Below, piece after piece: positions 1,060 through 47,700 of a stretch of 64,000 bases of DNA. Position numbers and translations under genes: made by a program. Origin of the DNA: Tetmemena sp. SeJ-2015 (lineage: Eukaryota; Ciliophora; Spirotrichea; Sporadotrichida; Oxytrichidae); NCBI GenBank assembly GCA_027382625.1, contig JAJKFJ010022447.1:62001-126000 (forward strand), in the 5' to 3' direction. Position 1 is the first letter of the stretch, and the number at the start of each line of letters is the position of its first letter. Under the pieces are notes generated by a model, which saw only the letters and a list, made by a program, of their open reading frames with translations, was not told where the DNA came from and ran no database searches.

Positions 1060-4000
1060 TCAAACTCTTCTTAGAAATTGAATATGCTCATAAGCACAAA
1101 TATAAATCAGATGTTTCACACTCATGGTTAAACGAATAAATTTTATACTGCTCTGCGACTTAGAAGTTGCTTTATTTTACCTTTTCTCAAAAGCTAATAG
1201 CCTACGCTATCTCTTGCATTAAGCTTTAATGAAAAATAAATCTTAAATTTACAGCTTTCTGTCATTGATCGCCTTTACTTAATTTTCATAGATTTAGTCT
1301 TAGGCTTCAAAAGCTGGATAGTTTTGCTAAGAGTTTCTAAAATCCTGGCTCCTAAAGCTATATCGATTGCTTTATAGATTACTATCATGCAACTATGAAG
1401 ATCTTATCCTATCCCTAATCTTCTGCTGGTTTGATATAGCCTTTAGAGCAGCGTCACTGCCGAATATCTTCTCATCTAGATTTTTGGATCGAGAGTTAAA
1501 ATTTTCCAATGAGGTTAACTGATCTACCTCTTAGAGTTGCTTTGAAGAGTTGAAAGAAGTACTCAGATAGCTCTTACCTTGGCTCTTGAATTGAACCTAC
1601 CTGCTTTAATTATTGTCGCTCAAGTACTGGTTTGAATAGATTCTAGAAGCTAGAGAGTAGTCCTTGTTTTTACCTGATAGATCTACATCTTTTGATAATT
1701 TCGGGGACAGAGGTTTCTTTTGAGAGACTAGAACTATAGCCGACTAGTCAGGTGACACCTTTTCTTAAATTTACTTTTAAAATGAATATTTCTAGAAAGC
1801 GTTGACTGAAGAAGCCTTTTTAACCCATAGAAGTTTGGGAGTTGGCATATAAAGATTCACTGTTCTCGTATCTCCTTGATTACTTCTCAAATGGAACTTT
1901 GTGAATGTTCCTTCCATCTTTCTCCTCTGCTTTTGGATACCTATCCCTTGATTTAATTTCCAAGTTGAAACTGCTGCTGCCTGCTTCTTCTCTTGAATTA
2001 GATACAGGTTTGAATTTCCCTTATTCTACTCTTTCATTTTACAGACTAAAACCTTCATCAAATTCCTTCAGGTTTTATAATTTTTCATTCTACTCTTCGG
2101 CTTTTTAATTTTGAGGATGAGTCTATTTGAAATGACGAGAGCAGACTCTTCTATGGTCAGTAGATTTGTATAAAGTCTTAATGTTAGTAGGCTCTCCACT
2201 CTAAATCATTACTCTTATTCCATCTATAGACTCTTGAAATATTTGTGGCCCTTAATGATTATGAATGATCTTGATTTTAAATCCTAATTCAATTCCACCT
2301 TAGATTCTCTACTCTAAACTTACACCCTTTAACCTTTAATCAGCTGGCCTTTGTTCTGGAAATCTTTAGCTATTAGCTTACTCATAAAGAACTAAGCCAT
2401 TGTCTGCTACTTTAGATGTTGAGAGATGCTTCCTTTAAAATTATTTCCTCCTTCATCAATCTTAGAAGATCCTAGGATTGAGCCAGAATGATCAAACTGA
2501 GCTTGTGGTGATGCCTTGTTTAAGATGCTTGAATTCTTCATTATAGAGGTGGGTGATGAAAGCTATTTTAAAGGCACAGAAACCTTAGAAGACAAATTTG
2601 GTTGCCTCTACTATTCAAGATATTCAGTCTATAGATTTTGAAGGTTATTCAAGAAAGCATCGTCTGAAGTAATTATATCCCTTCCTTGTTATCTGCTGGA
2701 AATCTTATCATATACAGTAGGATTAGGATTCTACGATGAAGTCCCTAAGTCTTGAGAAGTTCTCTCTGTTCTTAAGCTCTTAATCAAAGGCTAGTACTGT
2801 AATCTCTTATCTCGACTCAACTTATTGGTCTTGTTAATTTAAAGATTGGCTAACCTTGAAGTGAGAATGTGCTTCTCAAAAAGACAGCTGCTTTACCTCT
2901 AGCTCTAGTCTTCAGTTAGCGTCTCTTAGATCGGCTGAATCTCCCAAGGCGATGGAGCATTACTAGTTTGACTGAACTTAATATGCTAAGAATCGTGATA
3001 AGGCTCACTCAGTTTTTACTATCTGTAACTCCTAACTAGCCCAGTCAAGTAGAGTTTCTTGTTTTGATTCTTAGTAACCTACCCACTAGAATAAGTTTAG
3101 CGTTTCTTTCTCCTTTACCTGATCAGGTTTTCTAAGAACTATCTTTCAGATGAGAGAGGAAGTTAGCTCAGTAACTTTAAAGAGAGAGTGTCTCTCATAT
3201 CTACAGAAGTGGAGTTTAAGTTCCTACTGTTTTTTATCTACAAAGCTTCTCTGTTATCTTCACTAAATGGGATCGCCTCATTCGATGATATGATATTTCT
3301 ACTGCTCAAGATGGATTCGTTCTAGAGTATTTGATCAAGAAATGAATTGGAGTTTCTACTTGTACGAAAGGTTGCCTGCTTAATTGGCACCACTTAGAAG
3401 TTTTACCTCTAGACAAACGTGGACTAATTTTAGGGCTGCTATGATGCTTCATACTTTTCATACTCATCCAAGATCTTTTGCAGTTCAAGGTTATTGATTT
3501 GTATCGAAGACTCTCTAGATGGGTCAGATTTACTATTCTTCTTCAGTAAATGCAATGACTTTAAGCTCTCGCGTTTATTCTTATCTTGCTCAGAGTATAT
3601 AATTAAAAAGTAGACATGTTCCGGCTGCTGTGACAAACTTTGAATTTAGAAAGTAGGGACTAAGTTTCTCACAGAGGTTTCACTTTAGATTATAGAGCTC
3701 TCTTAAAGTTGCCTTATGGATTGAGGCTCTGAAGTTATATCATAAGCTTGATACTTAGGGCTTCCCATTTAGGGATTACTTAGCATCAGTTCATTATCTT
3801 TTGCTACTTGCTTGAGCTAAAAGTTATAGTTTTCAAAAGTCGGGCTGTTTTTATCACTTGCTATGTTCATCATCCCCACAGTGAAGGTTCCTTAGTCAGT
3901 TTTTAATAATGGTTGCTCCTTTGACTTGGGTTTAATTTTGGATTCACTAGACTTCTTCTCAAGTAAGACCTGTCTCTTACCAACCAGTTGCGTCACTCCT

Positions 4001-4200
4001 AAATATGCTTCCTAGCTTTCTTAATTCTGCTCTCTCTTATTTCTACTACTTGGCTTTTGAAATGACTGCCTCATGGCTGACTATCCATTTATTTATGATC
4101 TAGACATGCTTAGAACTCTGAGTCTGGTGGTATTCCTCGACTATTAAAATCGATTTGGCTGTTCTTGTCGATCCTTACTAAAGTTGTTCTTTTCTTCCAT
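1060..4200 (-). CDS. Ser/Gln-rich low-complexity protein, hypothetical
   Basis: Not recognised. With TAA/TAG as Gln, the frame from ATG 4200 is open without TGA to 2208 (about 2.0 kb). It then continues through three short putative IESs: pointer TAGA (2226-2204), pointer CTAG (1795-1748) and pointer TTAAC (1518-1500). The first TGA after that is at 1062-1060. Each removal restores an otherwise blocked frame, which argues for one gene of roughly 1000 residues. The protein is rich in Ser, Gln, Asn and basic residues, with short helical stretches (for example around ELQKILDEYEKYE) and no membrane segment. The last ~60 codons are AT-rich and may not all be coding. The 5' part (about 3440-4200) is partly duplicated at about 6785-7560 and 10130-10785. 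Confidence 0.7.
1500..1518 (-). other. Short IES, pointer TTAAC
   Basis: A 19-bp segment between TTAAC repeats. Deletion switches into the downstream open frame (RSVNSRSKNLDEK). Inferred from frame restoration in an unrecognised protein. Confidence 0.5.
1748..1795 (-). other. IES, pointer CTAG
   Basis: Segment of about 48 bp between CTAG repeats, containing an in-frame TGA (1750-1748). Deletion yields QRFLVGYSSSL and keeps the frame. Confidence 0.5.
2204..2226 (-). other. Short IES, pointer TAGA
   Basis: A 23-bp segment between two TAGA repeats carries the only TGA in this stretch. Deletion continues the Ser/Gln-rich frame as KSLQSGEPTN. Confidence 0.55.
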
Positions 4201-4369
4201 TTATTATCAATCAAAGTGCAATTATCCTAATAAATTTACTGATGCAAGTCCTATCAAATTAATGTATAAGCTATAACTTACACACAGTAATTAAAATTTA
4301 ATCACTTGTCCATAATCAGCAAAATAAATTAAAGTTATTAAGGAACAATAGCAAACTTAGATATTTCAG

Positions 4370-5140
4370 CTGTCAAGAAGCCAGAGAGGAATCACCTGCC
4401 GACTAGTTCCTGAGAACCATAAAAAATTCTTTAAGATAAAAATCTAGCATTAATTTTTGTTAACCTTTCCCTCTCTTTTGGTACGATTTGGCTAAAAAAA
4501 GAACAAGAAGATTCCTTAGCAAAATGACCCAAGGTTTATTAAATCAATGACACACGATAAGTTTAGCATGACTGCTGGGAAGTTTCAAATGCAATGCGCG
4601 GACAGTGCCTAATAAGAGGTAAAAACCTTTAAATACAAAACGAGTAATAAATAAGGAAGAGAAAGTGCTAATCATGCTTGACAATATTTAGCAATGGTAT
4701 AAAAATGATGGAGAAGAAGACTAAGATCAAGAATAAAAAGCTTGTAAAAGACTAGTAGAATCATCCTCCTCTTGCTAATACCAAGAAATTTAATTCATTC
4801 ATGAAAGTTAATAAGAGCTATGGATAGGAATTTATAATGGAATGTATCTCTGCGAAAGAAGGAGCAGGACTAGGAGAATTAATTTAGCATTTTATGGAGC
4901 AGACTATAAATAATCTCTCTTCACAACCAAGGAGTGACGCAGAAATTTTAAAGAAGTGTATGAGGTACAAAAAATTTCTCAAGAGCACATTTACAAACAT
5001 CTCGCATTTAGAAGAGGTCACCACACAGAGATAGTACTAAAATTATTCTATGGATTAATAGAAAATAAACTGATTGGATTATTTACCTCAACATTAATAT
5101 TGAATATTCTTTCACTTTTATTATTGAAAATTAGATAGAT
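4370..5140 (+). pseudogene. Decayed fragment of the 11029-13120 gene, unit 1
   Basis: Blocks of nucleotide similarity occur in the same order as in the intact gene at 12170-12790. Examples are the stretches encoding KKPEW...PENHQ, GWEVSNAVP, KTKIKNEKLVKD and KMYEVQHIAQE. The copy has internal deletions, frame changes and TGA codons, so it cannot encode the protein. It looks like an old partial duplication since carried inside the 3.35-kb repeat. The same fragment recurs in unit 2. Confidence 0.7.
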
Positions 5141-5329
5141 AGAGAGATATATAATTTATAAATAAAGAATGAACATATTATCAATGGGAGATGCCTAGAT
5201 CTCCAAAGGTCAAAACACCTAAATCCAAACCAACTCTCAGGTATTGAAGAACACACAAATAAACAATTACTATTTTAATTTCAATTTCTATATAAGACCA
5301 GATAGTAATTTATTATTTTTTGCTTCCCC

Positions 5330-5605
5330 AATACCTCCACATGATTCACAACAGAACGCAGCTGGAGTATTCGCTCACTAGGAAATGCATGAGGAACTAA
5401 AGAACGATCACGACGAACTCAGCTATGCTGAATATTAGTCTTAAGAAGCCTTACAGCCTACTCAGCCACCAGTTGTGGCTACGACTGTATCCGCCAATTA
5501 TGAATATGATGGGAAAATTAAGATGAGTCATGAAGAGTACAAGGAGCTATTTGCCACCCTATCCAAAGATGCCATGCATGACGACGACGCAGATGATGAT
5601 CAATG
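5330..5605 (+). CDS. Orphan acidic C-terminal coding segment, unit 1
   Basis: Open frame of about 90 codons ending in TGA at 5603-5605, with Gln written by both CAG and TAG/TAA. The translated tail is Pro/Gln-rich and then acidic (FATLSKDAMHDDDADDDQ). GC content is higher than in the AT-rich flanks, as expected of an MDS. No start codon or upstream exon is visible. It may be the last MDS of a gene whose other pieces lie elsewhere, or a remnant. Not recognised. Confidence 0.45.
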
Positions 5606-6144
5606 AATCAAATAATCATAAATTAATTTTTGAAAACATCGATTTCAGCGACGACAATGATTTGAGATTCAAAAATTGATTAACAATTTTAAATATCAAA
5701 GTCGAAAAGAAGTGGCAATAAAAAATCTAATAATAATATCTGAATTATTTTTGACAAACTAACTTACATTAATTTATGTTAAGAGTATTTCAAAAAACTC
5801 TTTTATTTTCATTTAAATCAACGCGAATAAATTAATACTTGCAATATTATGTTATAGACTTATTATTATAATAATATTTTTTTAATATGACAATGACAGT
5901 CTCGACTCCAACAGCAATTATAATGTCCTTTTTCTTGAGTGAACTCTCTAGATTTTTTTATTATAAACAACTTAAAGATAAGTAATTCTAATGTAAACTT
6001 CTCTCTCAATATTAAACTAAAATTCACTCATCACACCATTATCTAATACTCTAGAGGTTTTATAATTAAAGCCACCCCTTGACAATGGCAGGTAGTCATA
6101 GAGATCATTCAATTAATATAAATATCTTAAGTCATTTTCTTTTA

Positions 6145-6724
6145 AGATCATGTGGATCCTGCTACGCATTTTCAGCAGCAGCAAACGTGGAGTCACTTCT
6201 CCTCCAGCGCAATAAAACCTAATACAAAGGAATCGACCTAAGCGAGCAGCAAATACTTGACTGCACCTACGAAGGATACTATGGCAACTCAGGCTGCAGT
6301 GGAGGGGACATGATTAGCGTCTTTGATTTCTATCGCACGTATAAAGCGATGACTGAATAAGGGGTTTCCCTTACGATGGCAGGGATGGAACTTGTACCTC
6401 TGACGAGGCTGATGGGAAAGTGAAAGTCTATGATTACATCTTCTTCCAGACAAAGGACCCAGATGAAATCCTAGAATATGTTGCGAGATTTATAAGCATT
6501 TAAATAAGTTTGCATTTTGTGTATTTCCAGTGACTGTGGGCATCTCTGCAACCTCAGCCTACTTTAGATTTTACCAGAGCGGGATAATCACAAATGAGGA
6601 TTGTGGAAATTACCTCAACCACGCTGTGTTATTAGTAGGCTATGGAATTGTAATAAAAACTTGTCAGTTATCTGCAGAGAAAACAGCATTTAACTTTCCA
6701 CATGAACCTTCTTTTAGAGATTGA
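6145..6724 (+). pseudogene. Papain-like (C1A) cysteine protease, frameshifted copy
   Basis: Encodes the C1A core: active-site block SCGSCYAFSAAANVES, then SEQQILDCTYEG and GCSGGDM. After the ATTT-pointer IES (6488-6522) it continues VARFPVTVGISATSAY and the active-site His block NHAVLLVGYG. Around 6360 this copy reads GGGGTTTCCC where unit 2 reads GGTGTACCC. The extra 2 bases break the YPYDGRDGTC motif and lead to TGA. The propeptide and start are not visible upstream, and the frame ends at TGA 6722-6724 before a clean Asn-Ser-Trp-Gly motif. Best read as an inactive, partial copy. Confidence 0.75.
6488..6522 (+). other. IES in protease copy 1, pointer ATTT
   Basis: A 35-bp AT-rich segment between ATTT repeats at 6488-6491 and 6523-6526. 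Deletion joins EYVAR to FPVTVGISA exactly as expected for papain-family proteases. Confidence 0.75.
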
Positions 6725-7714
6725 TAGGATATAGACTTCAATAGCTGGTCTCCTCAATAAAAAAATTTTGTAATTCCTTTAGCAGGTTAAGATTAATTCT
6801 TAGGCTGCTGTGAGTCTACATACTCATACAAGCTCTTTAGTGGTTCGAGATTATTAATTCGTATTGAGGCTCTAGGGTATCATTCTTATTCAGTAAATGC
6901 AAGGACTTTAGGCTCTCACGCTTGTTCTTTTCTTGCTCAGAGTATAAAATTATAAAGTAGATATTTTCCGGCTGCTGTGAGAAACTTTGAATTTAGAAAG
7001 TAGGGACTAAGTTTCTCACTGAGGTTTCACTCTAGATTATTGAGCTTTCTTAAAGTTGCCTGATGGATTGAGGCTCTGAAGTTATATCATAAGCTTGATA
7101 CTTAGGACTTCCCATTTGAGGATTACTTAGCATCAGTTCATTATCTTTTGCTACTTGCTTGAGCTAAAAGTTATAGTTTTCAAAAGTCGGGCTGTTTTTA
7201 TCACTTGCTATGTTCATCATCCCCACAGTGAAGGTTCCTTAGTCAGTTTTTAATAATGGTTGCTCCTTTGACTTGGGTTTAATTTTGGATTCACTAGACT
7301 TCTTCTCAAGTAAGACCTGTCTCTTACCAACCAGTTGCGTCACTCCTAAATATGCTTCCTAGCTTTCTTAATTCTGCTCTCTCTTATTTCTACTACTTGG
7401 CTTTTGAAATGACTGCCTCATGGCTGACTATCCATTTATTTATGATCTAGACATGCTTAGAACTCTGAGTCTGGTGGTATTCCTCGACTATTAAAATCGA
7501 TTTGGCTGTTCTTGTCGATCCTTACTAAAGTTGTTCTTTTCTTCCATTTATTATCAATCAAAGTGCAATTATCCTAATAAATTTACTGATGCAAGTCCTA
7601 TCAAATTAATGTATAAGCTATAACTTACACACAGTAATTAAAATTTAATCACTTGTCCATAATCAGCAAAATAAATTAAAGTTATTAAGGAACAATAGCA
7701 AACTTAGATATTTC

Positions 7715-8486
7715 AGCTGTCAAGAAGCCAGAGAGGAATCACCTGCCGACTAGTTCCTGAGAACCATAAAAAATTCTTTAAGATAAAAATCTAGCATTAA
7801 TTTTTGTTAACCTTTCCTCTCTTTTGGTACGATTTGGCTAAAAAAAGAACAAGAAGATTCCTTAGCAAAATGACCCAAGGTTTATTAAATCAATGACACA
7901 CGATAAGTTTAGCATGACTGCTGGGAAGTTTCAAATGCAATGCGCGGACAGTGCCTAATAAGAGGTAAAAACCTTTAAATACAAAACGAGTAATAAATAA
8001 GGAAGAGAAAGTGCTAATCATGCTTGACAATATTTAGCAATGGTATAAAAATGATGGAGAAGAAGACTAAGATCAAGAATAAAAAGCTTGTAAAAGACTA
8101 GTAGAATCATCCTCCTCTTGCTAATACCAAGAAATTTAATTCATTCATGAAAGTTAATAAGAGCTATGGATAGGAATTTATAATGGAATGTATCTCTGCG
8201 AAAGAAGGAGCAGGACTAGGAGAATTAATTTAGCATTTTATGGAGCAGACTATAAATAATCTCTCTTCACAACCAAGGAGTGACGCAGAAATTTTAAAGA
8301 AGTGTATGAGGTACAAAAAATTTCTCAAGAGCACATTTACAAACATCTCGCATTTAGAAGAGGTCACCACACAGAGATAGTACTAAAATTATTCTATGGA
8401 TTAATAGAAAATAAACTGATTGGATTATTTACCTCAACATTAATATTGAATATTCTTTCACTTTTATTATTGAAAATTAGATAGAT
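7715..8486 (+). pseudogene. Decayed fragment of the 11029-13120 gene, unit 2
   Basis: Near-identical to 4370-5140 (offset 3346) and with the same lesions, so the decay predates the tandem duplication. Confidence 0.7.
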
Positions 8487-8675
8487 AGAGAGATATATAA
8501 TTTATAAATAAAGAATGAACATATTATCAATGGGAGATGCCTAGATCTCCAAAGGTCAAAACACCTAAATCCAAACCAACTCTCAGGTATTGAAGAACAC
8601 ACAAATAAACAATTACTATTTTAATTTCAATTTCTATATAAGACCAGATAGTAATTTATTATTTTTTGCTTCCCC

Positions 8676-8951
8676 AATACCTCCACATGATTCACAACAG
8701 AACGCAGCTGGAGTATTCGCTCACTAGGAAATGCATGAGGAACTAAAGAACGATCACGACGAACTCAGCTATGCTGAATATTAGTCTTAAGAAGCCTTAC
8801 AGCCTACTCAGCCACCAGTTGTGGCTACGACTGTATCCGCCAATTATGAATATGATGGGAAAATTAAGATGAGTCATGAAGAGTACAAGGAGCTATTTGC
8901 CACCCTATCCAAAGATGCCATGCATGACGACGACGCAGATGATGATCAATG
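8676..8951 (+). CDS. Orphan acidic C-terminal coding segment, unit 2
   Basis: Copy of 5330-5605 at offset 3346 with no disabling change seen. Same open frame and same acidic end before TGA. Confidence 0.45.
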
Positions 8952-9488
8952 AATCAAATAATCATAAATTAATTTTTGAAAACATCGATTTCAGCGACGA
9001 CAATGATTTGAGATTCAAAAATTGATTAACAATTTTAAATATCAAAGTCGAAAAGAAGTGGCAATAAAAAATCTAATAATAATATCTGAATTATTTTTGA
9101 CAAACTAACTTACATTAATTTATGTTAAGAGTATTTCAAAAAACTCTTTTATTTTCATTTAAATCAACGCGAATAAATTAATACTTGCAATATTATGTTA
9201 TAGACTTATTATTATAATAATATTTTTTTAATATGACAATGACAGTCTCGACTCCAACAGCAATTATAATGTCCTTTTTCTTGAGTGAACTCTCTAGATT
9301 TTTTTATTATAAACAACTTAAAGATAAGTAATTCTAATGTAAACTTCTCTCTCAATATTAAACTAAAATTCACTCATCACACCATTATCTAATACTCTAG
9401 AGGTTTTATAATTAAAGCCACCCCTTGACAATGGCAGGTAGTCATAGAGATCATTCAATTAATATAAATATCTTAAGTCATTTTCTTT

Positions 9489-10068
9489 TAAGATCATGTG
9501 GATCCTGCTACGCATTTTCAGCAGCAGCAAACGTGGAGTCACTTCTCCTCCAGCGCAATAAAACCTAATACAAAGGAATCGACCTAAGCGAGCAGCAAAT
9601 ACTTGACTGCACCTACGAAGGATACTATGGCAACTCAGGCTGCAGTGGAGGGGACATGATTAGCGTCTTTGACTACTATCGCACGTATAAAGCGATGACT
9701 GAATAGGTGTACCCTTACGATGGCAGGGATGGAACTTGTACCTCTGACGAGGCTGATGGGAAAGTGAAAGTCTATGATTACATCTTCTTCCAGACAAAGG
9801 ACCCAGATGAAATCCTAGAATATGTTGCGAGATTTATAAGCATTTAAATAAGTTTGCATTTTGTGTATTTCCAGTGACTGTGGGCATCTCTGCAACCTCA
9901 GCCTACTTTAGATTTTACCAGAGCGGGATAATCACGACTGAGGATTGTGGAAATTACCTCAACCACGCTGTGTTATTAGTAGGCTATGGAATTGTAATAA
10001 AAACTTGTCAGTTATCTGCAGAGAAAACAGCATTTAACTTTCCACATGAACCTTCTTTTAGAGATTGA
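9489..10068 (+). CDS. Papain-like (C1A) cysteine protease, core intact, 5' end missing
   Basis: Same layout as the unit-1 copy, but the frame is unbroken through TEQVYPYDGRDGTC. It runs from the catalytic Cys block (GSCYAFS) through the ATTT-pointer IES at 9832-9866 to the catalytic His (NHAVLLVGYG). One substitution separates the copies near the His (IITTED against IITNED). No signal peptide, propeptide or ATG can be joined upstream. The frame ends at TGA just after FPHEPSFRD, and an out-of-frame NSW motif lies about 25 bp beyond, suggesting another IES. C1A proteases act in lysosomal or secreted digestion. Possibly functional only if further MDSs exist outside the visible order. Confidence 0.7.
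9832..9866 (+). other. IES in protease copy 2, pointer ATTT
   Basis: Same segment and pointer as 6488-6522. Deletion restores EYVARFPVTVG. Confidence 0.75.
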
Positions 10069-11028
10069 TAGGATATAGACTTCAATAGCTGGTCTCCTCA
10101 ATAAAAAAATTTTGTAATTCCTTTAGCAGGTTAAGATTAATTCTTAGGCTGCTGTGAGTCTACATACTCATACAAGCTCTTTAGTGGTTCGAGATTATTA
10201 ATTCGTATTGAGGCTCTAGGGTATCATTCTTATTCAGTAAATGCAAGGACTTTAGGCTCTCACGCTTGTTCTTTTCTTGCTCAGAGTATAAAATTATAAA
10301 GTAGATATTTTCCGGCTGCTGTGAGAAACTTTGAATTTAGAAAGTAGGGACTAAGTTTCTCACTGAGGTTTCACTCTAGATTATTGAGCTTTCTTAAAGT
10401 TGCCTGATGGATTGAGGCTCTGAAGTTATATCATAAGCTTGATACTTAGGACTTCCCATTTGAGGATTACTTAGCATCAGTTCATTATCTTTTGCTACTT
10501 GCTTGAGCTAAAAGTTATAGTTTTCAAAATTCGGACTGTTTGTATCACTTGCTATGTTCATCATCCCTACTGTGAAGGTTCCTTAGTCAGTTTTTAATAA
10601 TGGTTGCTCCTTTGACTTGGGTTTAATTTTGGATTCACTAGACTTCTTCTCAAGTAAGACCTGTCTCTTACCAACCAGTTGCGTCACTCCTAAATATGCT
10701 TCCTAGCTTTCTTAATTCTGCTCTCTCTTATTTCTACTACTTGGCTTTTGAAATGACTGCCTCATGGCTGACTATCCATTTAGTTTTGAATAAGACAGGC
10801 TTATGACCTTCAGTCTGATATTCTATGGCGTCAAATCTATTTTACTGTTATTGTAGAGTAATGTCATAATTAAATTAATGCACAAGCTATAACTTACAGT
10901 CTTTAAAATTAATCACAAGTCAATAATCAGCAATAATTTATTATACCCTTAGACACACTCAAGTTCTGCTAATCATCATCTTGATTTAATTGTGAGTTTT
11001 TATTTATTTCAGCTTTTTAGAATCTGGA

Positions 11029-32019: not shown

Positions 32020-32358
32020 TCAGGATTCTTACTAAATATCATCAAGATCTGAATGTCTAAACACCTCGTCTTCTGGAACCTCTAGCCCAAATAATTTCTT
32101 AACATCTTCTCTATACTCCTCATATGTCTCATAAATATCTACTTTTAAATTTGATAAAAGTGTATTTGCAAAATCATAGTCGTAGCGAGTCCACTCGCCT
32201 CTGATGTATATTTTCCTCTTAGCTATAAATTTCCCTTCTTTGTAGCTGTCTCTGGGCACATAGAAGACCCAATTCTTACCCACTGGCGTAGTCTGAGCGT
32301 TCATCACATACATATCTCTAATTGGAGTCGAAACTTATAAGACACTTTAAGATGACAT
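32020..32358 (-). CDS. Small soluble protein, hypothetical (112 aa)
   Basis: Uninterrupted frame from ATG 32358 (MSSQSVLQVSTPIRDMY) to TGA 32022-32020. Basic middle (KEGKFIAKRKIYIRGEW) and acidic C-terminus (EVPEDEVFRHSDLDD). No membrane helix or known motif. The 5' end overlaps the open frame running past the upstream NAT domain, so either that gene ends earlier or the two share about 50 bp. Not recognised. Confidence 0.6.
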
Positions 32359-34990
32359 ATTGTTTAGACTTTAACTTAGGTGGTTAGGTGATCTATATAT
32401 TGAGCTTTCATCTATTTGACTGTTAGAGTTCTAATCGGATAGTGGAACCCAAAAAATTAAAAATGCAAAATTTGCCCATATCCGCACAGCTTCCTCTAAT
32501 CATCCTTGAAGTAATATTCAAAGAAGGTGCCTCCGTTCTTAAGCCAGACTGTGTCGAAAGAAGTTAGCTTGTACTCAACTTCAGACTGAGTGTGAGAGAG
32601 TATGGGTATGGGATATCTGATGGAGTCTGCACTAAAGCCTGAGTCCACTAGGTACTCCTAGTCCTCAATTATTACTCTGATTAAAGCATGTGAGAAGAAG
32701 TTAGACTCAGAGAATCCATTTAAATGTAAGAAGAATTTGTTGGGAATCATTTTTATGAATCCTTCAGGTTTATTTTTGAGCACTTGAGCTAAGAAAAGCT
32801 AAGCGTTAAATCCGATTTGCTTGAGCATGAAGAACAAAAGCAACTGCTATTCGTAGCACAACCCTCCTTTCTTCTCTATAAGCATTCTCTGAACTTACAA
32901 AAAAAAATACAAATAGGTAGAAATTGCAAATTATAGTAAATTATTTGAGTGCACCTTATCACTCTCATTCAAAGAATAGAGGTTAGGAACTTGGTCAAGC
33001 CAGTTTATAAGCATCAAGCCTTTTGCTTGGAAGTTCTTATTACAGATAAGTTTAACTTCCTTCTCTATGAAGCTTAAAACAATGGACGGATCAAAAGCTA
33101 TGGCAACAGCAACTGATATATTTCATAAAAACATAACTACATATCATTGAATTATCTAGGCAGGTCTAGAGCCTCCAGATAAAGTGAGAGATATTGCTTG
33201 TTTCTCTCCTCGAGTTAAATTCTTTTTTAAAAGGCCAAAGGATCCATTGACAGACAATCCTTGAGGTAGTACTTTAGTTTTTCCTCATCAATTGATGTGA
33301 CTATTTTAGAGAGAGACAAGTGCTACTGCTTCTCTTCAGCAGCCACCTTATCACTCTCAACTAAAAGAGTTTATTTGCTTGGTTATCGCTTTGACCTAGG
33401 ACCTTAACTTCCTCAGATATATCTAGATTACACAGCAAGCTGGTCATAGATGGGGTATCTACCATCAGGCTTTAAAGGAAATTAAAAAAAAGGAACTAAT
33501 AAGGCTCAAAAGTGGAGCAGACTCTGTTTGATTCCTTTACCATCCGAGCAATTGGGTTTTCTTGGTTAAATATTTCTGACTAAAACAAATTCTGAATATA
33601 TGACCTTATTTTATTGCTGACTGCTCCTCGAAAGAAAGAGCCATATAAAAATCGTGGCAGAGCTCATAGCTTACAGTCACTATCTTAGTTCCTAGCATCT
33701 CATACAGGAAACTTGCTTAAAAATAAATTTCATTTTTAAATCGCGGCCTCTGGGTCTGAGAAAAAGTTAAACTCACTGCACCAGTTAAAAATTGATTTAA
33801 ACGGCCTTTGAAATTTATAAACTCTTCAGAAATGGAAGTCAAAATAATTTTGTATTAAATTTATAATTCTCTGAACTAGGTCTTCAATTTCTAGACTGAC
33901 TGGCACTCTCTTTTTGAAATGGAAGTGGAAGTTTTGGTAAGGGAATGTGCATATATGCCTGTTTTAGACTAGATGCAGAGTTTCTAGGGACGGCTTAAGC
34001 ACCAGGAAGGTAGGCAGGTCTAGCCTAAAAATAAAATTTGTGAAATTATTTACTACAGAATTGAGTAAAATATAAATTTTGCACCAGTTAGGGGCATTTC
34101 CCTAGCCCTTGTAAGTTCCACCCATGACTATCAGCTACTTAATTGAATCTGTAAGTTCTGGGCTTTCCTTCAAGAGCCTGCTGAAATTTATAATGTGTGT
34201 TTTGTATAAAGCACTGTTTAATTTGTGACAGCTCCTATGACTACAAATGTGATTTGATTTGGATACTTAGTAATACTCTCCCTCAGGAAAGTATCAGCAC
34301 TCTCTTCATTATAAATAGAAAAGATGCTATTATTTTTCTTCATGGAGATTTTTAGTGCCTATTGGGCCGTGCTCAAGTTCGTATGCATCAGCAAAGCCCC
34401 CAAACCCATCAGCTCCGAAGTTATAGTAATATTAAGATCTACTCATGTTGCATAAATGTGAAGTAGAAATCTGTGTAGACAAAGTCATCTCTCTGGCCAC
34501 CCTTGTAGACTTTGATATTTCGCTCCTAGCACACCTCTAGAATAATCTGAGCGTTCTTCGTGACTTGGTCTACAGAATAGATAATTGAAAATATAAATAT
34601 TATTTATTTTAACTTTATAAAAAGGTAAATGGTTGCAGGCAGCAGTTGTTATTCCCAAAATTTATGAACCTTTTGCCTATGCTAAGTAGATAGCCAATAT
34701 TAAGGAGTGTGCGTCATCAGCTCCTGGGTCGCAGTCTAAAATCACTTTCTTTCATTAAGAATAGAAAAAGAAGCATTTATATTTTCTCAGGAATTCCTAT
34801 CAGCTCTGAGTACTTCTTTCCCTTACTCTTAAAATAATTTTGAAATGAATATCTTCAATAAGGAAGAGTCAAAAAGTTGGGTTTGAGGCTCCTATCGGTT
34901 TGCAAAGAAGTCCAGCTTGTCATTTCTGAAATTAAAGATTATTTCTGAGATGATCTCTACAATAAAAAATAAATACTTACGCTTGCTCAT
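32304..34990 (-). CDS. Scrambled nucleoside hydrolase-arylamine N-acetyltransferase fusion
   Basis: Pieces in macronuclear order: 1 (34990-34080), A (33787-33432), B (33112-32952), C (33359-33157), D (34023-33866), E (32895 onward). Piece 1 holds the nucleoside hydrolase Ca/substrate motif VILDCDPGADDAHS, then GITTAA, FGADGFGGFA and LIVMGGTYKGQGNAPNWC. Piece A continues SEFNFFSDPEAASFLYEML and DGRYPIYDQLAV; B continues AIAFDPSIV. C is a linker leading into NAT (SLYLEALDLP). D has PSLETLHLVQNRHICTFPY. E has the NAT catalytic Cys (KKGGLCYEQQ), His (FSHALIRV) and Asp (YLVDSGFS). Smaller IESs inside piece 1 use pointers GAAAGAA, ACTTC, ATGAAGA and AAATT; inside A, AGTCAG and AGCCT. ATG 34990 is followed by a GTAAGT intron. 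The stop is uncertain: first TGA is 32306-32304, overlapping the next gene. Confidence 0.88.
32884..32895 (-). other. Scrambling pointer D/E, AGTTCAGAGAAT
   Basis: The 12-bp repeat occurs at the end of D (33877-33866) and the start of E (32895-32884). Joining gives DLVQRMLIEKKGGLCYE, placing the NAT catalytic Cys correctly. Confidence 0.9.
33157..33169 (-). other. Scrambling pointer C/D, CTAGACCTGCCTA
   Basis: The 13-bp repeat occurs at the end of C (33169-33157) and the start of D (34023-34011). Joining gives YLEALDLPTFLVLKPSLETL, the canonical NAT N-terminus. Confidence 0.9.
33344..33359 (-). other. Scrambling pointer B/C, 16 bp
   Basis: TGAGAGTGATAAGGTG occurs at 33359-33344 (start of C) and at 32967-32952 (end of B). 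C lies upstream of B on the chromosome but downstream in the protein. Confidence 0.9.
33432..33438 (-). other. Scrambling pointer A/B, TTGCTGT
   Basis: The 7-bp repeat occurs at the end of A (33438-33432) and start of B (33112-33106). Joining gives YDQLAVAIAFDPSIV, skipping over piece C. Confidence 0.85.
33777..33787 (-). other. Scrambling pointer 1/A, TAACTGGTGCA
   Basis: This 11-bp sequence occurs on the minus strand at 33787-33777 and 34090-34080. Joining there gives NAPNWCSEFNFFSDPEAA, the nucleoside hydrolase consensus, and skips 34079-33788, which contains piece D. Confidence 0.9.
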
Positions 34991-35306
34991 TTAAGCTTTA
35001 CTCTGATGGCTACTATCGTTCCATTTTCAGAATCGCTACTAATTTGGTTATGTTTGCTTGTTAGTCTCTCAAAGATTAAATATATCTTTTACTGAAAGTT
35101 TAAATAGGGAAATCTAATGGCAGAATTAAGTCTTAAGGAAAGTGGTGCTTTTATAATTTACATAACAACTCTACTATATTTATTGAAATATAAGTAAAAG
35201 ACAAAGAGAAGTAAGGAATTTTAATTATAGAGACTCTCACCGTCTCCTACACTTTTAGCTACTATAACTTAGGCAAACTTTAGGCTAACCAAACTTGCGT
35301 TGTTTC

Positions 35307-41059: not shown

Positions 41060-42910
41060 TCAGGCCTCTGGAGCAACCAACTTAGCCTTGAGCTCTTCGA
41101 GCATGGTGAAGACCTTTTGGTTCTCTTCCTTGACCTGAGTGATGGTCTTTTGGAGCTGCTGCTTGTAGTCTTCTTCAGCAGAGGAGATGCTCTTGATGAT
41201 CTCAGATTCGACGCTAGAAGTGTGGTTGTTAACCTTGGCAATCATCTGCTCCAACTTGTAGTCGATGGCGTCACCCTTCTCCTTTAGCTCAGCAGCCACA
41301 TCGGAGGCGATGAGTAGATACTTAGTCTCGTCAGTAAAGGCCTACTTCATGTCATCAGGGATAAGGTAGGTGTTTTCAGCTATGATGTCTGCCTTCTCCT
41401 GGTAAGAAGCTTGAGCAGAGACAGAGTTAATCTTGGCGAAGGACTCTGAAATGATGGCGATCAACAGATTGAGCATGATGATCATGTTGAAGACTGTACA
41501 GAGGATGAACAAAACCCACATGTAGGGGACTGCAACTTCTCCGAACTTGCCAGTATCGAAATCTCCCAAGATCATTCTGTAGCAGAAGGTGAAGAGGCCG
41601 ACATAGGATTTGATGAACTGAAGGTCGTTGCCTTCCTCATCCTTAGTGTCTGGGTTGGAGGTAGAGATGCTTCTCATGGCATCTCCGAAGGCGACGACTG
41701 TCAAGAGGACAATCAAGAGGAAGTGGCGCATGTCAATCATGACCTCAATGATGATTCTGATAAGGTAGCCAGTGGATTAGAAGATACGGAAGAAGAAGAG
41801 GAACTTGATCCACAGCATCAGACTCATGGTTGCTTGGAAAGATGCCTCTAAGCTCTGGTTGCTCATGCGCTTGATAATTGAGGTGGTTCCATCTGCGTTA
41901 GTGATAGTCTCCTCTCTCAGGTCGAACTCTCCGTTCATCTCAAGGATGACGAACACGAAGAGTAGGATAGGAGGCAAGAAATCGAGGTAGTTCCAGAAGG
42001 AGGTGAAATAGCTGAAGCCAGATTTGAAAAGCTGTCTCATCTCCATGTAGATGAAGTAGGCGGCAAAGATGAGAAGTGGTACCATGATCACGTAGTTCAT
42101 GACCATCCACACATCGCTGGTTTGACGAAGCACATAGACTTCGTTCATATAGATCATGTAGAAGGCAAGGTAAGCCACGAAAGGATAGAACAGCTTTGTA
42201 AGGGTATACTGCTTAACAAGGGGCCATTTGTACTCAATCAGTTTCTTAATAGGCTTGAGAGTGAACAACTCCATCTGCTGAGTGTTTGCTAAAGCAGCCA
42301 TGAACTCATGAGAAGCCTCATCTGTGAAAGTGTGAATCTTTGGAATATCAACGAACTCAAGTAGCAAAAAGATGTTGAAAAATTAAAACAGAGCTATGTT
42401 TAGCAGTTCAGATTCAATTGGAGCAGGTTGAAGGATTCCATCAATATCTTCTTGATTATACCAGTAAGAGGAAACGCTAACTCCTGGGTTTTCCTTGACC
42501 TTGATCATACCTTTCTTGATCTTGGTGACCTGGTCTGTTTGTAGTAGGCGAGAGTTGATATAATCTCCAATAGAGGGGAGTTCTCTCTCAATGAGCATGG
42601 GTAGAGTGTGATGAATTGCTCTCATACATTTTCTTATAGAGAAATGTGAGAATTTTATGGATGCTCTTGAGTGGTGGTCATAGTCATAGCCAGCTAGGTA
42701 TCCAAGCATCATATCAAGTCCCTTGTAGTCTTGCTTATCCTTGAGGATATCCATGGGAGACTTGCCTTCGAAGTTTACCAAGAAGGGCACTTCGTACTTT
42801 ATCTCAGTTCTGTCCTCTGCGTTAGGCTGGCAGATTTCCATAATGGCCTCGATCAACTCAGAGTTGTCGGCCAACTCGTGCAAGAAGGTATTACCACCGG
42901 GAAGGATGTT
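41060..42910 (-). CDS. Ankyrin-like + TRP-like cation channel module (copy A)
   Basis: The frame is open without TGA from 42910 to TGA 41062-41060. It begins inside an ankyrin-like block NILPGGNTFLHELADN with no ATG, and a TGA lies just upstream. It then encodes a six-helix channel: TKLFYPFVAYLAFYMIYM, VIMVPLLIFAAYFIYM, FLPPILLFVFVILEM, DMRHFLLIVLLTVVAFGD, pore loop FCYRMILGDFDTG, and the last helix LFILCTVFNMIIMLNLLIA. A cytosolic coiled coil (KEENQKVFTMLEELKAKL) ends it. The 5' edge carries the pointer AACATCCTTCC, also present at the end of the WD40 module (44763-44753). Joined there, the protein reads RLIYNILPGGNTFLHELA. Likely the true 3' half of the WD40-channel gene. Confidence 0.82.
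42900..42910 (-). other. Pointer AACATCCTTCC (copy A side)
   Basis: The 11-bp repeat at 42910-42900 matches 44763-44753. The interval between (about 1.84 kb) contains channel copy B. Confidence 0.75.
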
Positions 42911-43076
42911 TCAAAATATAAATTAAGAAGAATGGAATAATTAGCTCTATTTAACTTCCCATTATCAATGATTGATAGTTCTGATATGAAAATTGATTCA
43001 AATAATCTCAGTCATTAAGAATAGATAGGTAATGCTCTAAGTCAGATTAAGATAAGACTACTCTCGAAGAGATTGA

Positions 43077-44700
43077 TCACTGAGCAGGCAGCTTCTCTGA
43101 AATCTCTTTGATGACCTCCATCATCTTTTGGTTTTCGTCCTTCACACTCTGGAGCACCTTGTCCAAGTCTGATTTGGATAGCTCTCTGAACTCCTTTATC
43201 TTTTCGTTAAGAGCATTTTGGATTGTGATAGCATGGTTGGTGATTCTGGAGGAGATCATGTCTAGCTTGTAGTCAAGGTCGTCTCCCTTCTCCTTCATCT
43301 CCTGCTCCACGTCTGTTGCGATGAGTAGGTAGATGTTAGGCTCGCAGAACCGCTTTCTCCTTCTCTCGGGGATGAGATAGTCGTTCTCAGCAATCATACC
43401 AGCCTTCTCCTGATAAGAGGCTTGCACTGAAACTTCGTTGATGCGGGCGAAGGACTCTGAGATGATGGCGACCAAGAGGTTAAGCATGATAATCATATTG
43501 AAGACTGTGCAAAGCACGAATAGGATCCACACATAGGGTACTGCGACTAGACCGAAGTTATAGGTGTCGAAATCTCCCAATACCATTCTGTAGGTGTAGG
43601 TGATGGAGTCGATGTAGGAGCCCACGAATTGGGAGGAGTTGCCACTCTCGTCAGGGACTTCCTCATTGGAGGTGGAGATGCTGCGCATAGCGTCTCCGAA
43701 GGCAACCATGGTGAGGAACATAATAAGGAGGAAGTGACGCATGTCTACGCACACCTCAATAATAATCCTGATCAAATAACCAGTACTCTTGAAGATACGC
43801 AGGAAGTAGAGGAACTTGAGCCACAGGATTAGACTCATGGTGGCTTGTAGGGAGGCCTCAAGAGTAGGAGCACCTCTGTTGTCAAACACTCCAATTGCAG
43901 CTAGAGGGATGAAGACAATAAGCAAGAAGGGTGGGATCAAGTCCAAGTAGTTCCAAACTGAAGTGAGGTAGCTAAGTCCTTCGTGTCTAAGCTTTAAAAT
44001 GAAGTTAAGTTGGCAATTTTATCGCTGCTGAACCTCGTTGTTGACGAAATAGAGTGAGAAGGCAAGTAGAGGAACCATGAATCCGTAGTTGATCCACATC
44101 CAGTCATCGTTAAGCTCTCTCTTATAGAAGATGTAGTTCATGTACACTAGGTAGGAAGAGAGGAATCCAACGAAAGGAATGAATAGTTTCTTGATAGTGA
44201 ATTCTCTAGTTAAGGGCCACTTGTACTCTATAATTCTTCTGACTGCTTTACAGTCGAATACCTACATGTCTTGGGTTTAAGCAAGTGCTTCGAAGAATTC
44301 AACTGCTAGGGGTTCGTAGGTATGAATACTGGGGATGTCCACAAATTCTAGTCTGATTAAAAAGAGAAATACACACTCACACACATACGCATACTGTAAT
44401 GATTTCAGACTCTATGGGTGCTGGCATGAACATCTTGTCTTAGTCCTTGGGAGTGAGCCAGAATGGAGCGACAGATATACCTGTGGAGTTTGTCTATCTG
44501 ATGCAACCCTTCTTAATCTTCTAAGTAGCCTCAGTCTGGCAGAGTCTTGAGTCAAGGTAAGACACCAATTGAGGAAGCTCGCGCTCTACCAACAAAGGAA
44601 GCACTGCTTACATTCAACTCTTATTATGAATTAAGAATTGGGTTTTGGAGATTTAAGAAAAATTTAATTATGATTGCTCTTGAGTGGTGGTCTTAAAAAT
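43077..44700 (-). CDS. TRP-like cation channel module (copy B), nested
   Basis: Paralog of copy A sharing the order REFTIKKLFIPFVGFLSSYL, DLIPPFLLIVFIPLAA, DMRHFLLIMFLTMVAFGD, pore loop TYRMVLGDFDTYN, FNMIIMLNLLVAIISE and a longer C-terminal coiled coil ending SEKLPAQ and TGA 43079-43077. It starts in the block DHHSRA, which shares an 18-bp identical stretch with copy A, and lacks the ankyrin segment upstream of it. IESs are likely at about 44660-44560 (pointer AGCA) and 44400-44345 (pointer ATCA). It lies wholly between the two ends joined by the 11-bp pointer. It could use the same upstream WD40/ankyrin pieces alternatively, have its own pieces elsewhere, or be a decaying duplicate. Confidence 0.7.
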
Positions 44701-44752
44701 ATTAAATCTTGTCCTCCTATCTCGCCCTCATAAAATAAAAGATTTGGGAGGA

Positions 44753-47700
44753 GGAAGGATGTTGTAGATGAGTCTTTGAACTTGCTCAGAATCAATTTAA
44801 GATGCTTCAATCTCACCGGCTTCAAGCTGCTCGATAAGGTTCCAGTGGAGGAAGGTGAAACTGAGATCAGCTACATGTCTTAACTTGGTGTAGTGAACGT
44901 TGTAGTCTACGGTGTTGAGCACTTGGTAGAGTGCATGAGGGTCTCTCTTCTTGTCGAGGAGATAGGCAGACTTGAACTGCTGGTACTTTCTCTACATAAA
45001 AAAGTATTTAAAGCTAATCTCTTGAGTCTCTCGAAAGTGTCGAAGGTGTGTTTCTCTGGGTTTTCATAGTCATAGGGGTCGCAAGGAGGAGGGTCAATGT
45101 AGTAGTGGTTGTTGTTGCAGAGGTCCTTGTCGAAGAGTGGGATGCGGTTGAACTCGATCTCCTTGAAGTTGTTCTTCAGGTCGACCAGTCTCTCGATACC
45201 CTCGTGGTTGATGATCTTGACGGTGTCGTTGTTAACCCACAAGAACTGGTGAGACACGTGCACGAAGTCGTCCTCCTTATTGGGGCTGGACATAAGCCAC
45301 TCGGGAATGATGTGTCTGATCTCCTGGGTGAATGAGTCACGGATCAAGAAAGTCCTGTTCTTTCTATCGACATCCAAGTACATGGAGAAATCGTGGGAGA
45401 AGATGTAGGGGAACTGGCACTGAGAGATCAGATCAGTAGGGAAGTTGCTGAATCTGTGCACCTACTACCAAGTCACATGGTTGCCCTGGCCTTGCACCTT
45501 CTTGTAGAGGAAATAACGTTGGTTGACTAAATGCTCATACATGTATTCAGTGTCTTGGGAGAAGAAGATATTCTGCACTTATCGTTGTTCATAGAATGGA
45601 TGCACGAAAGATAAGTGCTCCTTTACTTCGCGCTCATTGATGATCTCAATAAGTTTCCAGTGGTAGAAGTTCTTCTCGGCTTTCTTGACGTAGGAGACCT
45701 GACTCTTGATATTGCTCTTGGTCATGAGGGGGTCGAAGAAGGTGTTCTCATCATACTCTGCGATAGACTACTTGCTCTTGATGAGGATCTTGTTCTACCA
45801 CTCTCGTAGGTAGGTGAAATTTTCATCGTGGCACATGTAGACCTCGTAGTTGGAGTAGTCTTGTCCAGTTTTGTTGGCTGAGAGGTTCCACTCCATGCGA
45901 ATCTTACCGGTCATGACTCCCCAGGTGCGGAGGTGGTTGTTCTTGTCGAGGGTCACAAACTTATCGTCAATGACTCTGGCAGCTAAGTAGTTGGGTCTGT
46001 TCTCCATACCGATGAATGATATGGTGTTTCTGTGGAGAACAGGCACGACCTCGATGGCATCGTAGGAGGAGAGGAAGACCAGTCTCTAGTTGGAGTGAGA
46101 GAAGTCAATAAGGCCTTGGCAACCGACCTGCATAGAACTGAGCAAGTAAGATAGGTCCTGATCCTTCTCAATAACGTTCTCAATATCGTAGAGGCGGAAA
46201 CCGGAAGATCTTGTCTTGATCATGGTTGGGTTAGACTTGTGGCACAAAGTGTAGAGGTAGTTGTTGTCGGAGAAGTAAAGACCCACACAGTTAAATTCAA
46301 AATGATCATTATCTTTGTTGATCTAATTTATTGAGTTTTGTTCTTCGTAGGTCTTGGTCTCGTTGGTCTTGATGTCAATCTTATAGAAGTTGCTGTTGTC
46401 CACCAAGAACATGTATCAATTAATTCAAATGACTTCATCTTCATCATAATAGTCGATTATAATTTTGCTATCTCTCGTCCTTGAACCTGACTCCGGAATG
46501 GATCATGCCGCCCATGTCGGGCACATTCATAAGCTCATAGAGTTTGTTGACGACGGGCTTTTCTTCGCCCATTACCAGCTCGAACAAGTAGATATTGTCA
46601 GTGATCTGGCAAAGGAACTCAGTCTTATCGCTGGGAGAGAACATGAACACGAAGTTTGTCTCACTGTTGAGGAAGGGGTAGTCCTCGTCTGTGAAGGTGT
46701 AGAGCTGCCTCTTGTGGAGGATGTTCAAAAAGAAGTTGTAGCCTGACTCCTTGTCTGGGTTCTCCTCCCTAGTCAGCACGAAAGACCATTGGTTCTCATC
46801 TCTGTCGGTGTCTAAAGTTACTAACTCTCCTTTACAAGCGTGCTCTAGCTCTTGGTCCACAGAGTACTCCTCAGACTCTGGGTCCTCGTTTCCTCTAGTG
46901 TTAATGAACTTAATCCTTCCATCATAATATAAGAACTATTGATCTCAACTTAATATCAGTAAGCAACACTACGACTTCGAATTGCTCATTCTCATCGAGT
47001 AGTCTGTAGATCTGCTCAACCTAGGCGTCAAACTCGTAGTGGCGAATCCACTTCTGCTTAAGCACACTGAAGAAGGAGACCACATGACCGTGGGCGACGA
47101 GCATGAAGGTCTTGATGAACACGAAGCTGTTGAAGAGCTTGCAGTGGTTCTTTATCTTCTAGTAGAAGATGTTGGGGAAGATCAAACCCTTTCTCTGCTC
47201 ACCTTCGTCTAAGCACATTCTGGTGGTCAGTTCCGTCTTAATAGAGCGGATATCAGCCTTTCCTATCTGTAAGAAGAGCTCATCGAAGGTAGTCTCGATT
47301 GCGTAGATTGTATCAGGAGGGTTATCAACTGACGAGATTCTAGCACAGTTGTAAATAGAGATAAGAGAACTCGAAATTATGATACTAGGGCTTAGAGTTT
47401 AATAGATATCGAGCTTGCTGGATTCACGGAGAGCAAGAGCACCTAGATCTCCCCACTTGTTAACTGAGTAGGAAAACTTGGTGACTGGGTCGAATCTGTC
47501 GTTTCTGGGAACCACTTCTCTGTACTGAGTGAATTCGTAGTCGAAGTCCTCTCCAACTGCCTTAAAACAAACCACACTAGGTAATCAATCAGCATGCATT
47601 CTTTAAGCTCCTTGTTGTTGATGACAAGCATGTTGAAGTCAATCTGGTTGTCGAGAGTCTCCATAGCTACGATAAGGTTAGTAACATCACTGTCGTTTGT

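What the first reader, a model, noticed from the sequence alone, without database searches (positions are those of the whole stretch)
32304..34990. Scrambled germline gene: protein order 1-A-B-C-D-E lies on the chromosome as 1-D-A-C-B-E
Seen directly: five long repeats (11, 7, 16, 13 and 12 bp) pair the ends of segments that are not neighbours. Joining at each repeat gives continuous family consensus for nucleoside hydrolase and then NAT. NAT piece D sits inside the nucleoside hydrolase coding run, and C precedes B. Established: spirotrich germline genes can be scrambled with pointers, and scrambled junctions tend to have longer pointers than simple IESs. The 7-16 bp here against mostly 3-8 bp elsewhere in the window fits this.
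Basis: partly seen in the sequence, partly recalled or inferred. Interest (0 to 1): 0.95.

Follow-up and report, generated by a model that had tools for sequence, protein, structure and literature searches.

The report
Ciliate germline gene in shuffled order
In this single-celled ciliate's reproductive nucleus, one enzyme gene lies in 18 pieces, two of them out of order, with matching short repeats showing how the pieces would be rejoined; this is a new, well-supported example of a kind already known from this group.

Summary
Confirmed. Joined at repeats it gives one 724-residue frame with a single terminal TGA (code 6): a nucleoside hydrolase (NH) fused to an arylamine N-acetyltransferase (NAT). 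Seven predicted proteins of relatives carry the same fusion in the same order, and aligned to the window they fall in the scrambled order. The gene spans 35024-32020, wider than reported. Scrambled pointers (7-16 bp) exceed simple ones (2-7 bp; p=0.0009).

Two additions. Three proteins of one relative (probably Oxytricha) share 465 of 465 residues before the D|E point and diverge 5-10 residues after it: the scrambled junction matches the boundary between a shared part and alternative NAT halves. The spacer where B "should" lie is the most GC-rich of 17 and matches B best of 18 segments, as the published duplication-and-decay model predicts; this is suggestive only.

Scrambled spirotrich genes are well known: a new member of a known kind. 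No somatic copy from this species was found.

The parts
34080..35024 (-). Block '1' = MDS1-8: cores 35024-34987, 34919-34852, 34826-34783, 34745-34628, 34575-34460, 34416-34337, 34302-34220, 34184-34080; simple IESs between them with pointers AAATGA, AAGA, GAAA, ATT, ACTTC, ATGAAGA, AAATT. Encodes the N-terminus and first half of NH.
   Evidence: identity to P0001: MDS4-8 29/40, 31/38, 15/27, 15/28, 18/35; MDS1-3 weaker (4/13, 7/23, 5/13)
33866..34023 (-). Block 'D' = MDS15 (core 34010-33866 plus 5' pointer): NAT N-terminal part, displaced into the interval between MDS8 and MDS9
   Evidence: 31/48 identical to P0001
33432..33787 (-). Block 'A' = MDS9-12: cores 33776-33743, 33714-33617, 33575-33502, 33466-33432; simple pointers GC, AGTCAG, AGCCT
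33157..33359 (-). Block 'C' = MDS14: last part of NH, linker and first residues of NAT in one frame
   Evidence: 29/57 identical to P0001
32952..33112 (-). Block 'B' = MDS13: C-terminal NH segment, lying after C instead of before it
   Evidence: 20/40 identical to P0001; 3 of 4 homologues
32020..32895 (-). Block 'E' = MDS16-18: cores 32883-32475, 32447-32373, 32331-32020 (ends with TGA); NAT catalytic part and C-terminus; pointers TGGG and TAAGTT, plus a probable in-frame IES bounded by GGATTC (32757-32762 / 32712-32717)
34080..34090 (-). Scrambled pointer 8->9, 11 bp (other copy 33777-33787)
33432..33438 (-). Scrambled pointer 12->13, 7 bp (other copy 33106-33112)
32952..32967 (-). Scrambled pointer 13->14, 16 bp (other copy 33344-33359)
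33157..33169 (-). Scrambled pointer 14->15, 13 bp (other copy 34011-34023)
33866..33877 (-). Scrambled pointer 15->16, 12 bp (other copy 32884-32895); lies 5-10 residues before the point where proteins P0001-P0003 diverge
33360..33431 (-). Spacer between MDS12 and MDS14, flanked by the same two pointers as MDS13; possible decayed duplicate of MDS13 (GC 0.347 against 0.181 +/- 0.060 for the other 16 spacers)
   Evidence: suggestive only

Best explanation
This is a scrambled germline (micronuclear) gene of a hypotrich-like spirotrich ciliate. During development of the somatic nucleus the AT-rich spacers are removed and the 18 coding segments are joined at microhomology pointers, one copy of each pointer being kept. 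Twelve joins link neighbours on the chromosome; five (8->9, 12->13, 13->14, 14->15, 15->16) skip over or reverse the chromosomal order because segments 13 and 15 lie outside their slots. The product encodes a nucleoside hydrolase fused to an arylamine N-acetyltransferase. Shown here: the segment order, the repeats, the uninterrupted frame, and the fused order in relatives' proteins. Inferred from established knowledge of Oxytricha: that the joining occurs in this cell, guided by maternal RNA templates and small RNAs with transposase-made cuts.
For: Joined frame of 725 codons with one terminal TGA, 13 and 37 TGA in the other frames; 9, 14 and 28 TGA in the three frames if the segments are left in chromosomal order. 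Full-length Pfam matches: NH profile positions 1-295 of 297, 171.4 bits; NAT 1-236 of 240, 86.7 bits (made with an earlier 655-aa model). Of 39 proteins found (7,996 candidates scored), 7 have both domains, 35-46% identity and 83-100% coverage. Independent tblastn order. Pointer lengths: scrambled 11, 7, 16, 13, 12; simple 6, 4, 4, 3, 5, 7, 5, 2, 6, 5, 4, 6 and the probable GGATTC 6; one-sided Mann-Whitney p=0.00086, the direction reported for Oxytricha, Tetmemena and E. woodruffi (PMC9797194, section 8 read). Segment GC 0.406, spacer GC 0.230. C4A4 telomere repeats in the assembly, 67 exact matches to a 20-base pattern, 9 of them starting at base 1 of a contig. Motifs typical of the active sites are present: the NH DxDPGxDDA stretch starts at residue 54; the stretches with the NAT Cys, His and Asp start at 466, 522 and 537 (catalytic roles recalled).
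Against: No somatic contig, read or transcript of this species: the genome search, which scores only the best candidates, finds no other locus with both domains and not the joined 13/14 sequence (up to 2 mismatches). Simple pointers and the 7-bp pointer are individually within chance. I chose the simple junctions by eye, as exact repeats that keep frame and homology, so a repeat at each of them is partly by construction. MDS1-3 and MDS17-18 are weakly conserved. The joined product has 16 extra residues at the 13/14 join that the homologues lack, so that join could be misplaced or hold a further eliminated piece.
Confidence: 0.95

Rival explanations
1. A rearranged pseudogene: an ordinary gene broken and shuffled by neutral rearrangement, never rejoined.
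For: No expression or somatic copy was found. No other locus with both domains was found in the assembly.
Against: No premature TGA or frameshift over 724 codons once joined. Long exact repeats at the displaced breaks, each giving an in-frame join. Active-site motifs intact. Relatives keep an intact fusion.
Confidence: 0.02
2. Assembly error: two loci or alleles stitched in the wrong order.
For: The assembly holds high-GC, bacterial-looking contigs, so it is not clean; read support could not be checked.
Against: The displaced segments have AT-rich flanks and exact pointers matching their true neighbours. No second copy of the gene was found in the assembly to be stitched in.
Confidence: 0.02
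3. The order is real but the gene is assembled in more than one way: the NH + NAT-N part is shared and D is joined to alternative E halves, as the protein data suggest for a relative (alternative MDS processing).
For: P0001-P0003 are identical at 465/465 columns before the D|E point and share 66/276, 55/303 and 111/298 after it. Alternative MDS processing is documented in O. trifallax: 69 loci, 153 chromosomes (PMC4684698: abstract, passages and section 13 read).
Against: In this assembly the MDS16 protein matches only this locus at E<=10; the other NAT-like loci are distant (28-33% identity to P0001).
Confidence: 0.1

Closest known systems
Scrambled genes of Oxytricha trifallax, Tetmemena sp. 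and Euplotes woodruffi (Feng et al. 2022, PMC9797194; abstract and sections 5, 8, 9 read)
   Same: Out-of-order MDSs, microhomology pointers longer at scrambled junctions; in the stretch 12-16 the even segments are colinear and the odd ones displaced.
   Different: Another species: best homologue about 44-49% identical; 146 Mb assembly against 496, 237 and 172 Mb. Only translocation here, no inversion.
Scrambling in Strombidium cf. sulcatum and Halteria grandinella (Lyu et al. 2024, PMC10901763; abstract and sections 15, 17, 18, 19 read)
   Same: Gene scrambling in further core spirotrichs; pointers mostly AT-rich and under 10 bp.
   Different: Those are partial short-read germline assemblies, 135 and 225 Mb with 44,899 and 117,978 contigs; this one has 5,213 contigs. 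Whether this species is one already studied is not known.
Alternative MDS processing in O. trifallax (Chen et al. 2015, PMC4684698; abstract, passages and section 13 read)
   Same: The P0001-P0003 proteins look like such a case, with the switch at this gene's D|E junction.
   Different: Only one E half was found in the window's own genome. The paper's main text does not mention hydrolase or acetyltransferase.
Duplication-and-decay model of scrambling (Gao et al. 2015, as described in PMC9797194 section 8)
   Same: The 72-nt spacer in slot 12/14 and MDS13 are flanked by the same two pointers, the configuration that the model tests.
   Different: Similarity is weak, unlike the ~97.5% identical cores of E. 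woodruffi pairs.

Membership tests
Scrambled spirotrich germline gene | Segment order on the chromosome differs from the order in the product | tested here: met
   (order 1-8,15,9-12,14,13,16-18)
Scrambled spirotrich germline gene | Exact direct repeats (pointers) at the ends of segments to be joined | tested here: met
   17 of 17 modelled junctions have a repeat of 2-16 bp (partly by construction); 4 of 5 scrambled ones beyond chance
Scrambled spirotrich germline gene | AT-rich eliminated spacers | tested here: met
   spacer GC 0.230, segment GC 0.406
Scrambled spirotrich germline gene | Continuous somatic copy in the unscrambled order | tested here: inconclusive
   fused order present in predicted proteins of relatives; none from this species found in the assembly
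Scrambled spirotrich germline gene | Spirotrich background: TAA/TAG read as Gln, C4A4 telomeres | tested here: met
   21 in-frame TAA/TAG and TGA as stop in this gene; telomere repeats in the assembly, none in the window; 18S not found
Scrambled spirotrich germline gene | RNA-template- and small-RNA-guided joining in development | not testable with these tools
   needs developing cells
Alternative MDS processing (shared 5' segments) | More than one 3' part joined to the same 5' part | tested here: inconclusive
   suggested for the relative behind P0001-P0003 from proteins only; one E half in this genome
Duplication-and-decay origin of scrambling | Spacer between segments n-1 and n+1 is a decayed copy of segment n | tested here: inconclusive
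   MDS13 is the best of 18 segments (8 of 300 plain shuffles reach it) and the spacer has the highest GC of 17. Against: 51 of 1000 dinucleotide shuffles and 15 of 1842 window pieces reach the local score, 225 of 1000 shuffles and 308 of 1842 pieces the global one, 46 of 1000 at protein level; 19 of 200 in the first screen
Nucleoside hydrolase (PF01156) / arylamine N-acetyltransferase (PF00797) | Full-length profile match above the curated cut-off | tested here: met
   171.4 bits (cut-off 34.2) and 86.7 bits (cut-off 22.8) (655-aa model)

The most novel reading that the evidence does not exclude
The D|E junction is an ancestral recombination hinge of the hypotrichs. The last shared segment (D) became mobile in the germline, and the same junction is used in Oxytricha to attach several different NAT catalytic halves to one nucleoside hydrolase. 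Scrambling and combinatorial assembly would then be two outcomes of one old DNA-joining site, with a decayed copy of B still marking the vacated slot.
Probability: 0.3. Interest if true: 0.65.

Novelty: new member of a known kind. Interest (0 to 1): 0.45.

Why it matters
It shows that a scrambled gene can be read from raw germline sequence alone and then confirmed by homologous proteins of other species. It gives one locus where three questions meet: how segments get displaced, whether the vacated slot keeps a decayed copy, and whether scrambled junctions are the sites where alternative gene halves are attached. The D|E coincidence can be tested directly on the published Oxytricha germline map.

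Tried and rejected
A first hand-built model used two wrong joins, a 5-nt 'mini-IES' after GAVTN and a 190-nt IES with a GAT pointer in E. The homologues replaced them with AAATT, TGGG and TAAGTT; two searches were still made with the protein of that earlier model. An apparent frameshift in block A vanished once the 7-bp pointer to B was used. The start at 34990 with a possible intron was replaced by the ATG at 35024, whose protein begins ME as in the homologues; this remains uncertain. One search had the start off by one base, and its translation and alignment are void; its segment ends stand. Repeats of 11-12 bp elsewhere in the region were rejected as pointers because they do not join homology.

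First spacer screen: 7 spacers or flanks against 6 blocks, 42 comparisons, rows with at most 20 of 200 shuffles shown. One row compared the E IES with an E block that contained it and is trivial. The upstream flank against C reached 0 of 200 and was not pursued; with 42 comparisons I do not claim it. Decayed copies of D: the D-A spacer reaches 3 of 200, 26 of 1000 local and 342 of 1000 global; the other three spacers tested are no better than shuffles (422, 942 and 634 of 1000 local). Not claimed. In one search one protein frame of the vacated spacer scored 7 of 1000, but only through the pointer that was included in it.

The organism could not be named: no exact match to a universal 18S word. 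Another gene in the window is 79% identical over 42% of its length to a EukProt protein without a name. Passages of PMC7586852 helped only with the background of scrambling in other hypotrichs.

Full report
The window is bases 62001-126000 of a 166-kb contig in a 146-Mb, 5,213-contig assembly. Its long frames carry in-frame TAA and TAG, read as glutamine, with TGA as stop. The assembly carries C4A4 telomere repeats, 67 exact matches to a 20-base pattern, 9 of them at base 1 of a contig, which fits a spirotrich ciliate; the window itself has none. At least two contigs are high-GC and bacterial-looking, 0.66-0.71 in the fetched loci.

Observation. Four are far longer than random windows of this region usually share; the 7-bp one is not. 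The order itself is shown without using repeats. Searched by tblastn against the whole assembly, P0001 hits the minus strand in the order NH first part, NAT N-terminal part (D), NH middle (A), NH end plus NAT start (C), NH late part (B), NAT remainder (E). On the window alone, with four homologues, D precedes A in 4 of 4 and C precedes B in 3 of 4; the fourth has no separate B hit. That is 1-D-A-C-B-E.

Gene model. Using homologues to place the joins, I obtain 18 segments and 17 junctions, a 2,175-nt frame from ATG at 35024 to TGA at 32020, and one stop codon, at the end. The other two frames hold 13 and 37 TGA. Left in chromosomal order the segments give 9, 14 or 28 TGA. An earlier 655-residue version already matched NH over profile positions 1-295 of 297 and NAT over 1-236 of 240. 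The first three segments rest on weak similarity. One further in-frame IES bounded by GGATTC is likely inside MDS16: the homologues shown lack 15 residues there, the length between the two repeats. Sixteen extra residues at the 13/14 join have no counterpart in the homologues and stay unexplained.

Order in relatives. Of 39 proteins found (7,996 candidates scored), 7 carry both domains. P0005 and P0006 are named Stylonychia lemnae. P0001-P0004 and P0007 come from EukProt under numbers that I recall as Oxytricha trifallax entries; no tool named them, and that they come from somatic chromosomes is inferred. A search of the paper library for nucleoside hydrolase, arylamine N-acetyltransferase and ciliate together gave 0 papers, so I saw no prior description of the fusion; that is one search of one library.

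Pointers. Scrambled junctions use 11, 7, 16, 13 and 12 bp, simple ones 2-7 bp (13 values including the GGATTC case; one-sided Mann-Whitney p=0.00086). Longer scrambled pointers are the rule in Oxytricha, Tetmemena and E. woodruffi (PMC9797194, section 8). Segments are 40.6% GC and spacers 23.0%.

The D|E point. P0001, P0002 and P0003 are identical at 465 of 465 aligned columns before the residue where window MDS16 begins, and share only 66/276, 55/303 and 111/298 after it; the first differences come 5 (two pairs) and 10 (one pair) residues past it. P0004 matches P0001 at 455/465 before and 91/240 after. The two S. lemnae proteins show no such break: 281/420 before, 137/228 after. One NH + NAT-N part joined to several NAT halves is what alternative MDS processing yields in O. 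trifallax (PMC4684698: abstract, passages and section 13 read). The match in position with the 12-bp scrambled junction could be luck: five scrambled junctions in 724 residues fall within about five residues of a given point some 7-8% of the time (my arithmetic, no call). In this genome only one E half was found.

The vacated slot. The spacer between MDS12 and MDS14 is bounded by the same two pointers as MDS13, the configuration in which the published model expects a decayed copy. It scores highest against MDS13 among all 18 segments (8 of 300 plain shuffles reach it), and it is the most GC-rich of 17 spacers (0.347 against a mean of 0.181, sd 0.060, for the other 16). Against this, 19 of 200 shuffles in a first screen, then 51 of 1000 dinucleotide shuffles and 15 of 1842 window pieces score as well locally, a global alignment is unremarkable (225 of 1000 shuffles, 308 of 1842 pieces), and the protein-level match is reached by 46 of 1000 shuffles. 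I call it suggestive.

Mechanism. By established knowledge of Oxytricha (recalled, and partly in PMC9797194), RNA templates from the old somatic nucleus and small RNAs guide retention and joining, transposase-type enzymes cut, and one pointer copy remains. Nothing here tests that.

Verdict. The finding is right in substance, with the limits extended. The kind is well known: 7.3% of loci in E. woodruffi and 13.6% in Tetmemena are scrambled (PMC9797194 abstract), and 12.9%, 15.9% and 29.2% of chromosomes in Halteria, Strombidium cf. sulcatum and Oxytricha (PMC10901763, section 19). I therefore rate it a new member of a known kind, with added interest from the D|E coincidence and the possible decayed copy.

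Noticed in passing
window 3535-10817: A tandem duplication: 3535-7473 and 6882-10817 are 98.9% identical over 3,940 bp. A frame in the first copy (5758-6423) matches papain-like cysteine proteases; the second copy was not tested.
   Followed up: partly
window 41060-46415, minus strand: Two neighbouring channel-like genes, 73% identical over about 600 bp. The first (41063-42910) matches Ion_trans and PKD_channel; the second has an uninterrupted 1,112-residue frame, 79% identical to a EukProt protein with the same domains over 42% of its length.
   Followed up: partly
P0001-P0004 (proteins of a relative, probably Oxytricha): Identical or nearly identical first 465 aligned columns followed by different NAT halves, probably alternative MDS processing; the switch coincides with the window's D|E junction.
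   Followed up: partly
L010 (C3313) and L011 (C593): Two further NAT-like loci, similar to each other, that look unscrambled by eye.
   Followed up: no
L003/L005 (C1948) and L007 (C2418): Nucleoside-hydrolase-like loci with interrupted frames; L003 seems to carry a repeated piece of its C-terminal part near 2200 and 3000, perhaps a segment duplication.
   Followed up: no
L001 (C2304) and L002 (C1832): GC 0.71 and 0.66 with bacterial-looking genes: probable contaminant contigs in the assembly.
   Followed up: no
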